This document shows, in pieces, positions 3,950 through 5,348 of a stretch of 20,723 nt of DNA. The stretch comes from a virus. The position numbers were made by a program, and so were the translations under genes. Location of the stretch: the IMG/VR virus record IMGVR_UViG_3300034279_001641, positions 1 through 20,723 of that record. One strand, 5' to 3'. A model generated the notes under the pieces. The model had not been told where the DNA came from and did not search any database. It saw nothing but the letters and a program-made list of their open reading frames with translations. The first letter of the stretch is position 1. Each line of letters opens with the position of its first letter.

Positions 3950-4420
3950 ATGAAGAAAATCAACCTAGAAGAAGTCAAGGCATTTATTGAAGCACAAGGC
4001 CCGGAGACCAAAATCTATCTGGGTTGCGACTCAGAACGACTCAAAGTCAACAGCGAATGGCATGCTGACTATGTGCTGGCCATTGTGGTTCATATCAATG
4101 GCAACAACGGTTGCAAGATCTTTGGTGAAGTACATCGCGAACGTGTGTGGGATCAAAAGCCCGGAAAACCTGCTATGAGACTCATGACCGAAGTGTATAA
4201 AGTTTCGGAACTGTACTTGAAGTTGGCTGAAGTTCTGGAAGGACGCCATGTTGAAGTTCACTTGGATATCAACCCCGACGAACACTATGGCTCAAGCTGT
4301 GTTATCAGTCAAGCTGTGGGCTACATCAAAGGCACTTGCAATGTGGTTCCGTTTGTGAAACCATACGCTTTTGCTGCCAGCTATGCGGCTGACCGTTTCA
4401 AAGGATTCAAGGTTGCTTGA
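3950..4420 (+). CDS. RNase H-fold protein of the DUF458/YkuK type
   Basis: The 156-residue product resembles the DUF458 (YkuK) branch of the RNase H-like fold. The visible features are a first strand with an acidic residue (KIYLGCDSE, D27), a central VEVHLDINPD (H104, D106) and a C-terminal 'VGYIKGTC ... VKPYAFAAS' stretch typical of the family. Members are predicted nucleases, but their substrate is not established. Upstream of this ATG the frame runs back through tRNA-Leu(CAA) and is not coding. The leader TTTTTGAAAGAAGTAGT resembles the one before the ORF at 2480. The gene sits directly between the tRNA island and the structured gene-free region, so a role in RNA processing is possible but unproven. 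Confidence 0.72.
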   Translation: MKKINLEEVKAFIEAQGPETKIYLGCDSERLKVNSEWHADYVLAIVVHINGNNGCKIFGEVHRERVWDQKPGKPAMRLMTEVYKVSELYLKLAEVLEGRHVEVHLDINPDEHYGSSCVISQAVGYIKGTCNVVPFVKPYAFAASYAADRFKGFKVA

Positions 4421-4431
4421 GTCTGTCCAAA

Positions 4432-4465
4432 TACACTAGACTTTTAATTGAGTCTAGTGTACAAT
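4432..4465 (+). promoter_or_regulatory. Perfect 10-bp inverted repeat overlapping a weak promoter
   Basis: TACACTAGAC (4432-4441) and GTCTAGTGTA (4452-4461) are exact complements around a 10-nt loop. A weak promoter is superimposed: TAGACT (4438-4443), 16 nt, TACAAT (4460-4465). Its start would fall near 4472, exactly where the structured RNA begins. The repeat could be an operator. It could also be the terminator of the upstream gene, since AATTAGTTTTT follows. Confidence 0.45.
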
Positions 4466-4729
4466 TAGTTTTTGCTGATGCAGAAATGCATTGGCCGGTA
4501 AGGTAAAAGTAGATTAGAACGGACTTGCTTGGCTTCATGCCAAGTTCAGCCCATAAAGCTGAAATCTACAATGGCAATCGTCTGAAAAACGATCGTGTTT
4601 GTGTGCTCCAATTCCAAAATACAATGCATATTGATAATTGGAAATACATAGACCCCTGTGCTTTGAATTTTGTTCTTTGCTTGTGATATTCCTTAACCGG
4701 ATATCGTTGCATTTTGCACTGTCTGTTAC

Positions 4730-4762
4730 TTGACTTTTATCTTACCACCCTTGCATTACAAT
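4730..4762 (+). promoter_or_regulatory. Weak promoter before the coiled-coil gene
   Basis: TACAAT at 4757-4762 is a good -10 box, but the best -35 (TTGACT, 4730-4735) is 21 nt away, too long for a strong promoter. A start near 4769 would give a leader of only about 7 nt. Confidence 0.35.
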
Positions 4763-4775
4763 CAAAAGGCAACAA

Positions 4776-5348
4776 ATGAAAATTACTCTACGCAAAGCAA
4801 ACGCACTGCAATTGGCCATTGGCGAAGCAGTCAAAAACATTGACATCAACACTGACGTCAAGATCAACGAATTCCAACACGGTGAATCTGAAATTGCTCG
4901 TGTTGCCACAGAGTTCCGTGAAAATCTAGCCCGCCGCACACAACTGATGGATGCGATGTACGCAATACGCAAGGCTGTGAGCACTGCCAACGCAGGTGCT
5001 GGAGTTGATGTCAAATTGGCCGACGTAGCCATGCTGGAAAAGCAGGTGCAGTTCTACAACGGCCTAGCCGGCAAAAAGATTCGTGAAGATGCAGTGGTTG
5101 TTGCAGGTCAACTGACCAAGCTTCGTGAAAGCAAGGACGACTCTCGTCGTAGCATTTACGGCTACGCTAGTACTGTTGACACTAGTGTGTTGACTGCGGA
5201 AGACATCCGGGGTTTCCGAACCGCGGCTGCTACTGCAAAGAAAGCCAAGCAAAAACTGCAAGATGAGCTGTTGGAAATCAACGTTCGTACAGAGATTGCA
5301 ATTGCACAAGATGCAGTGCAGTTTCTAACTGCAGAAGGTTTGATTTAA
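4776..5348 (+). CDS. Hypothetical alpha-helical, coiled-coil protein (190 residues)
   Basis: The product is almost entirely helical by composition, rich in Ala, Lys, Glu, Gln and Arg. The pattern 'FRENLARRTQLMDAMYAIRKAV' is typical of coiled coils and recurs in the C-terminal third (TAKKAKQKLQDELLEINVR). There is no signal peptide or membrane segment. It may be a virion or tail accessory protein or a helical adaptor, but I do not recognise the family. AAAAGG about 6 bases before the ATG is the ribosome site. A strong hairpin terminator follows, so this gene ends a transcription unit. Confidence 0.75.
   Translation: MKITLRKANALQLAIGEAVKNIDINTDVKINEFQHGESEIARVATEFRENLARRTQLMDAMYAIRKAVSTANAGAGVDVKLADVAMLEKQVQFYNGLAGKKIREDAVVVAGQLTKLRESKDDSRRSIYGYASTVDTSVLTAEDIRGFRTAAATAKKAKQKLQDELLEINVRTEIAIAQDAVQFLTAEGLI

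What the first reader, a model, noticed from the sequence alone, without database searches (positions are those of the whole stretch)
4432..4727. Candidate structured noncoding RNA next to the tRNA island
A 355-base stretch has no gene but can form a long-range helix (4495-4503 with 4691-4700), a three-way junction (outer stem 4509-4515/4563-4569, two hairpins within), a GAAA-tetraloop hairpin at its start, further hairpins and a possible pseudoknot (4518-4524 with 4721-4727). A weak promoter within a perfect 10-bp inverted repeat would start the RNA exactly at the first hairpin. I recognise no known family. The neighbour at 3950 is a predicted RNase H-fold nuclease.
Basis: partly seen in the sequence, partly recalled or inferred. 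Interest (0 to 1): 0.75.

Follow-up and report, generated by a model that had tools for sequence, protein, structure and literature searches.

The report
Phage RNA with UUG-repeat array, partner protein
Between two genes of a large freshwater phage lies a previously undescribed folded RNA of about 280 bases that displays evenly spaced U-U-G triplets; related RNAs sit beside the same small, uncharacterised protein gene in several unrelated groups of large phages, so the two probably form one RNA-protein particle.

Summary
The gap 4421-4775 (355 nt) folds far better than shuffles (z -7.15). It is conserved as DNA in dozens of IMG/VR contigs, with strong compensatory change in seven helices. The 'pseudoknot' (4518-4524/4721-4727) is a genuine nested helix (P2), and the true closing helix P1 is 4497-4510/4733-4746. 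The RNA probably spans about 4468-4750. In relatives its 5' end follows either a sigma70-type promoter or, 0-1 nt away, a tRNA CCA end. Its hallmark is an array of NUG units (mostly UUG) every 7 nt: six in a row, plus two in the P6 loop. No Rfam family matches. The RNA tracks the next gene (4776-5348, 190 aa, no Pfam family), not the RNase-H-like gene: it lies beside essentially every homolog with enough flank, upstream or downstream. The pair also occurs, RNA unannotated, in cultured Caulobacter/Brevundimonas jumbo phages (period 7) and in Eneladusvirus/Mimasvirus/Munch-type jumbo phages and Vibrio phages (period 8). Best explanation: a trans-acting RNP in which the RNA displays regularly spaced sites for several copies of its partner protein. 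Binding and function are untested.

The parts
4433..4460 (.). inverted repeat (10-bp arms 4433-4442 / 4451-4460) over the promoter -35 region and spacer; role unknown (operator or upstream terminator)
   Evidence: direct reading; other near relatives keep a palindrome of different sequence here
4437..4465 (+). sigma70-type promoter: TAGACT 4437-4442, 17 nt, TACAAT 4460-4465
   Evidence: same position and spacing in relatives, up to TTGACA-17-TATAAT
4468..4750 (+). the noncoding RNA (predicted extent; 5' motif GUUUUUG, 3' end after closing helix P1)
   Evidence: conserved block in 36 non-redundant relatives; z -7.15; 5' end inferred from promoter or tRNA CCA position
4474..4495 (+). P0 hairpin 4474-4482/4487-4495, GAAA loop
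   Evidence: permutation z -11.8
4497..4510 (+). P1 closing helix, 5' strand (partner 4733-4746)
   Evidence: z -12.0; all 14 pairs with changes on both sides; 4510:4733 significant in tree-based null
4518..4524 (+). P2, 5' strand (partner 4721-4727)
   Evidence: z -8.5; 95.5% paired
4528..4544 (+). P3 hairpin (GGCUUCAUGCC)
   Evidence: z -15.1
4545..4563 (+). P4 hairpin, present in close relatives only
   Evidence: gaps in most members
4577..4593 (+). P5 hairpin (family loop motif CUUGAAAA)
   Evidence: z -13.4
4597..4653 (+). P6 hairpin (4597-4605/4645-4653; 4608-4613/4636-4641); loop holds two NUG units 7 nt apart (4624-4626, 4631-4633)
   Evidence: P6b z -9.0; 4609:4640 significant; P6a 97% paired
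4656..4716 (+). NUG array: CUG 4656, UUG 4663, 4670, 4677, [P7 hairpin 4685-4689/4701-4705], UUG 4707, 4714
   Evidence: period-7 runs absent from shuffles, uninterrupted runs of 6 in members without P7; column conservation
4685..4705 (+). P7 hairpin inserted between the 4th and 5th unit; absent in some relatives
   Evidence: z -11.0; absent e.g. in L097
4721..4727 (+). P2, 3' strand
4733..4746 (+). P1, 3' strand; followed by a T-run in many relatives
4776..5348 (+). partner gene: 190-aa helical protein, no Pfam family, homologous to CcrColossus gp272 and GAP32_372
   Evidence: linkage; structure model pLDDT 88, pTM 0.63; no Pfam

Best explanation
The locus encodes a two-part RNP module of large phages: a discrete noncoding RNA of about 200-290 nt and a 170-200-aa helical protein encoded next to it. 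The RNA's ends are brought together by long helices P1 and P2; inside, hairpins hold out single-stranded NUG units (mostly UUG) at a fixed pitch: two in the P6 loop and five or six in a row near the 3' end, every 7 nt here and every 8 nt in other phage groups. The array most likely works as a ruler that loads several copies of the partner protein side by side, and the resulting particle acts in trans during infection, probably in the tRNA/translation programme in whose gene island it lies. Shown here by sequence: the RNA fold, the array, its defined 5' context, linkage to the protein. Inferred: transcription as a discrete RNA, binding of the protein to the NUG units, its copy number, any role in translation.
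For: Fold: z -7.15; covariation score 0.423 vs 0.215 shuffled and 0.09-0.14 when slid; per-helix permutation z from about -8 to -15 for P0, P1, P2, P3, P5, P6b, P7, and -5.6 to -9 among representatives at <65% identity. Array: period-7 NUG runs of 4 (interrupted by P7) to 6 in freshwater phages and 5-6 in Dolichocephalovirinae, period-8 runs of mostly 5 in the other jumbo-phage group; mean about 2.1 in shuffles. Discrete RNA: 12/36 members begin 0-1 nt after a tRNA CCA end, 12 or more have a promoter 2-4 nt before the same 5' motif. Acts in trans: RNA lies before the gene in most freshwater phages but after it in L098, L101, L118, L123, L128, L138, L140 and others and in all cultured phages checked. 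Partnership: RNA found beside 27 of the 31 homolog loci listed by nhmmer; of the 4 misses three are cut by the contig end and the fourth (L265) has the array about 200 nt downstream. 2x2 in 80 neighbourhoods 57/0/2/21, both exceptions explained. Distant homologs found by structure or profile in Vibrio phage Vp_R1 and Erwinia phage pEa_SNUABM_47 then proved to have the array too. The Klebsiella phage homolog ENKO_435 is annotated as seen by LC-MS/MS in a preparation the authors say retains complexes above 300 kDa (PMC11218385).
Against: No expression, binding or phenotype data. Conservative pair-by-pair testing with a tree-based null gives only two individually significant pairs. Permutation tests do not fully remove relatedness. 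Genetic linkage does not prove binding. The partner's fold (elongated helical, BAR-like arrangement) is not a known RNA-binding fold. The RNA-to-RNA relation between period-7 and period-8 groups rests on shared architecture and gene partnership, not on alignable sequence. Several jumbo-phage RNAs could be 3' parts of the gene's mRNA.
Confidence: 0.7

Rival explanations
1. Sponge: the partner protein is a phage translational repressor or RNA chaperone, and the RNA titrates it with many NUG sites, as CsrB does for CsrA.
For: Repeated identical short sites and linkage to one small protein fit a sponge.
Against: A sponge needs no fixed pitch, yet spacing is exactly 7 or 8 nt; the RNA carries large conserved non-repeat elements; always one RNA beside the gene.
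Confidence: 0.15
2. Decoy for a host factor: the NUG array captures a host protein, initiator tRNA or ribosomal subunit, and the linked protein only stabilises the RNA.
For: Location in tRNA islands (35/36); NUG triplets are start codons.
Against: The pitch differs between phage groups while the linked protein is constant; hosts are very diverse (Caulobacter to Vibrio).
Confidence: 0.1
3. Cis-regulatory leader: the RNA is the 5' untranslated region of gene 4776 and controls its translation, by a ligand or by its own protein.
For: In the window and most freshwater relatives it ends 3-30 nt before the start codon.
Against: In many relatives and in all cultured phages checked it lies downstream of the gene or up to 1.6 kb away, and in 12 members it begins at a tRNA end.
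Confidence: 0.04
4. DNA element (iterons, replication or packaging site) that happens to fold.
For: Regular direct repeats recall iterons.
Against: Compensatory changes in RNA helices including G-U steps, one orientation relative to the gene (41/41 on the same strand), promoter or tRNA end at its 5' side.
Confidence: 0.01

Closest known systems
GOLLD RNA (Rfam RF02032)
   Same: Large structured RNA of phages in tRNA islands; found near the partner gene in L281 and L101 and on the same loci in L123, L150, L171
   Different: Different RNA: no Rfam match to the element itself; the GOLLD model has 416 positions and is a separate gene nearby; no NUG array is known to me in it
CsrB/RsmZ-type sponge RNAs
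   Same: Many copies of a short single-stranded motif for a small protein (inferred here)
   Different: NUG instead of GGA, fixed pitch, closed by long helices, partner encoded alongside; no Rfam match
TRAP-binding leader (11 (G/U)AG repeats)
   Same: Regularly spaced trinucleotides, a protein-binding ruler
   Different: Pitch 7-8 rather than about 5 nt, NUG, trans-acting position, unrelated protein (comparison from general knowledge)
ROOL / OLE large ornate RNAs
   Same: Large conserved noncoding RNAs of unknown role; OLE has protein partners
   Different: No model match

Membership tests
Any Rfam 15 family | match at or above the curated gathering score | tested here: not met
   none for the RNA in the window or in 23 further loci incl. 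cultured phages; only chance-level hits at E<=10
GOLLD | RF02032 model match over the element | tested here: not met
   GOLLD is found elsewhere in the same loci, never on this RNA
Csr/Rsm sponge RNA | match to the Rfam models of CsrB/RsmY/RsmZ type | tested here: not met
Cis-regulatory leader / riboswitch | constant position in the 5' UTR of a regulated gene | tested here: not met
   RNA before or after the gene
Retron ncRNA | linked reverse transcriptase | tested here: not met
   constant neighbour has no reverse-transcriptase or other Pfam match
tmRNA / tRNA | ARAGORN or Rfam detection | tested here: not met
New family proposed here (NUG-array RNA) | closing helix, P6-type loop with NUG pair, 5-6 NUG units at pitch 7 or 8, partner gene within about 1.6 kb | tested here: met
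New family proposed here (NUG-array RNA) | partner protein binds the NUG units | not testable with these tools
   needs biochemistry

The most novel reading that the evidence does not exclude
A so far unknown class of viral RNP machine, spread over at least four lineages of large dsDNA phages and perhaps giant viruses of protists (fold matches in Yasminevirus and Catovirus), in which an RNA with a molecular ruler of NUG units templates the ordered assembly of a dedicated protein.
Probability: 0.55. Interest if true: 0.92.

Novelty: categorically new. Interest (0 to 1): 0.86.

Why it matters
Conserved RNA-protein pairs in phages are rare, and this one recurs in jumbo phages of alphaproteobacteria, enterobacteria, vibrios and unknown freshwater hosts, so it probably matters to infection. 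It gives a testable partner for an unexplained RNA of phage tRNA islands, and a repeated-motif RNA whose pitch switches between 7 and 8 nt offers a natural experiment on how a protein reads RNA spacing. Cultured phages with it exist, so it can be tested now.

Tried and rejected
Rfam at gathering and at E<=10: nothing. Pattern scan of 84,980 bacterial/archaeal genomes with a strict motif: 0; protein search there found only two MAG contigs. RNase-H neighbour as partner rejected. Single-pair covariation with a Fitch/tree null was underpowered: two pairs. Partner-protein function from PDB: 3kdq (unknown function) stands first (Foldseek E 8e-3, Z 10.8 over 141 residues, rmsd 7.1) but helical bundles give such Z by chance. 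Literature searches for heptad UUG RNAs, phage structured RNAs and the jumbo-phage review gave no description. Idea that UUG units capture tRNA-Leu(CAA), which lies upstream in the window: weakened because Brevundimonas phages use CUG/GUG/AUG units.

Full report
OBSERVATION. The window is a 20,723-base virus record with eight tRNAs. The gap between the RNase-H-like gene (3950-4420, PF04308) and the next gene (4776-5348) is 4421-4775, 355 nt. Folded as RNA it gives -106.6 kcal/mol against -74.5 +/- 4.5 for shuffles, z -7.15. Rfam has no match.

RELATIVES. tblastn-confirmed scans with the two flanking genes, a DNA pattern scan of viral contigs and profile iteration gave 49 distinct RNA sequences, 36 after removing those at least 90% identical. 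Rows align over the whole element. A strict pattern has no match in 84,980 prokaryote genomes.

STRUCTURE. The consensus is: 5' GUUUUUG, hairpin P0, closing helix P1 (window 4497-4510/4733-4746), inner closing helix P2 (4518-4524/4721-4727), hairpin P3, an optional P4, hairpin P5, long hairpin P6, a single-stranded NUG array interrupted in most members by hairpin P7, then P2' and P1'. On 35 sequences 83.3% of cells pair (about 40% when the partners are slid by 1-3 columns), 53 of 67 pairs have changes on both sides, and the covariation score is 0.423 against 0.215 in shuffles. Exchanging 5' and 3' strands between sequences destroys pairing: z -11.8 P0, -12.0 P1, -8.5 P2, -15.1 P3, -13.4 P5, -9.0 P6b, -11.0 P7, and still -5.6 to -9 among representatives under 65% identity. 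A stricter pair-by-pair test with a null evolved on the tree left two significant pairs, 4510:4733 (UA 18, GC 17, 35/35) and 4609:4640.

THE ARRAY. Near the 3' end nearly every member has NUG units at an exact pitch. In the window: CUG 4656, UUG 4663, 4670, 4677, then hairpin P7, then UUG 4707, 4714. Members without P7 have six in an unbroken run. The loop of P6 holds two more, 7 nt apart. The spacer letters vary while the UG letters stay. Period-7 runs of five or more were not seen in shuffles.

ENDS. In 12 of 36 members the RNA begins 0-1 nt after the CCA of a tRNA, and in 12 (plus L097, L049, L052 and L025, read by eye) a sigma70-type promoter ends 2-4 nt before the same GUUUUUG motif; 35 of 36 have a tRNA within 1.5 kb. 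Two unrelated ways of making the same 5' end indicate a discrete RNA. Many members have a T-run just after P1', so P1 may double as an intrinsic terminator (inference). In the window itself P1' is followed by ACCC and the ribosome-binding region of gene 4776, so read-through into that gene is likely.

PARTNER. Clustering of neighbours put one family first: homologs of gene 4776, 41 of 50 loci, always on the same strand. Reading the sequence directly showed the gene after the RNA in L019 and L033 too; others without it are mostly contig ends. The RNA lies 3-30 nt before the gene in most freshwater phages and after it in others. Anchored on the protein instead (335 relatives), 27 of the 31 loci listed have an nhmmer hit nearby; three of the four misses (L190, L196, L249) are cut by contig ends, and the fourth, L265 (27% identity), has a five-unit array about 200 nt downstream. 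In 80 neighbourhoods of the RNase-H-like gene the two occur together 21 times, neither 57 times, RNA alone never, gene alone twice: L010 is truncated, and L073 holds a divergent copy visible by eye.

OTHER PHAGES. tblastn found CcrColossus gp272. An unannotated gap of 284 nt follows it, with six UUG units at pitch 7 and a closing helix GGTGGAAGCGG/CCGCTTCCACTC (z -4.97). CcrPW and Brevundimonas phages are the same, with CUG, GUG, UUG and AUG units. A structure model of the window protein (pLDDT 88) matched viral models in CcrColossus, Erwinia phage pEa_SNUABM_47, Vibrio phage Vp_R1 and, more weakly, the giant viruses Yasminevirus and Catovirus. Profile search confirmed the Erwinia and Vibrio homologs (E 1.8e-8, 5.5e-9). 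Their downstream gaps hold P1-closed RNAs with NUG at pitch 8. The same is seen in CBB, GAP32, XbC2, Kaldavass, Munch, 7t3 and fENko-Kae01, each with a five-unit array, and in SJSY21 with four; PG07 has a clear 16-bp closing helix but only three units in register. In all proteins aligned R65, D163 and N169 are invariant.

INTERPRETATION. Linkage in both gene orders excludes a plain leader; regular pitch argues against a simple sponge. I conclude that RNA and protein form an RNP, with the array as a ruler for several protein copies. The tRNA-island location suggests a role in translation or tRNA supply, but that is inference.

LIMITS. No RNA or binding data exist here. The homology of period-7 and period-8 RNAs rests on architecture plus the shared gene. 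Hosts of the freshwater phages are unknown.

Noticed in passing
L281:648-1065; L101:4951-5415; L123:7549-8012; L150:4568-5028; L171:9349-9813: GOLLD RNA (RF02032) lies in the same tRNA islands as the new RNA and its partner gene in five of 23 loci checked, in PG07 directly upstream of the gene.
   Followed up: partly
L097:9635-10220: Permuted tmRNA (RF04321) in a phage contig, about 3.7 kb downstream of the new RNA.
   Followed up: no
window 4433-4460: Palindrome over the -35 and spacer of the RNA promoter; close relatives keep a palindrome with different sequence (e.g. CACTAGGCAG..CTGCCTAGTG, ACAGTTGC..GCAACTGT).
   Followed up: partly
BFVD A0A5K0UAD2 (Yasminevirus), A0A1V0SA40 (Catovirus): Giant-virus proteins with a fold similar to the partner protein (TM about 0.65, E 5e-5 to 8e-5); whether an RNA lies beside them is unknown.
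   Followed up: no
PDB 3kdq: Corynebacterium protein of unknown function is the best solved structural match of the partner protein.
   Followed up: partly
L150:499-585: tRNA-Sec-like match (48 vs gathering 47 bits) in a phage tRNA island.
   Followed up: no
window 3950-4420: RNaseH_like (PF04308, phrog_11311) gene is widespread in large phages, mostly without the RNA nearby.
   Followed up: yes
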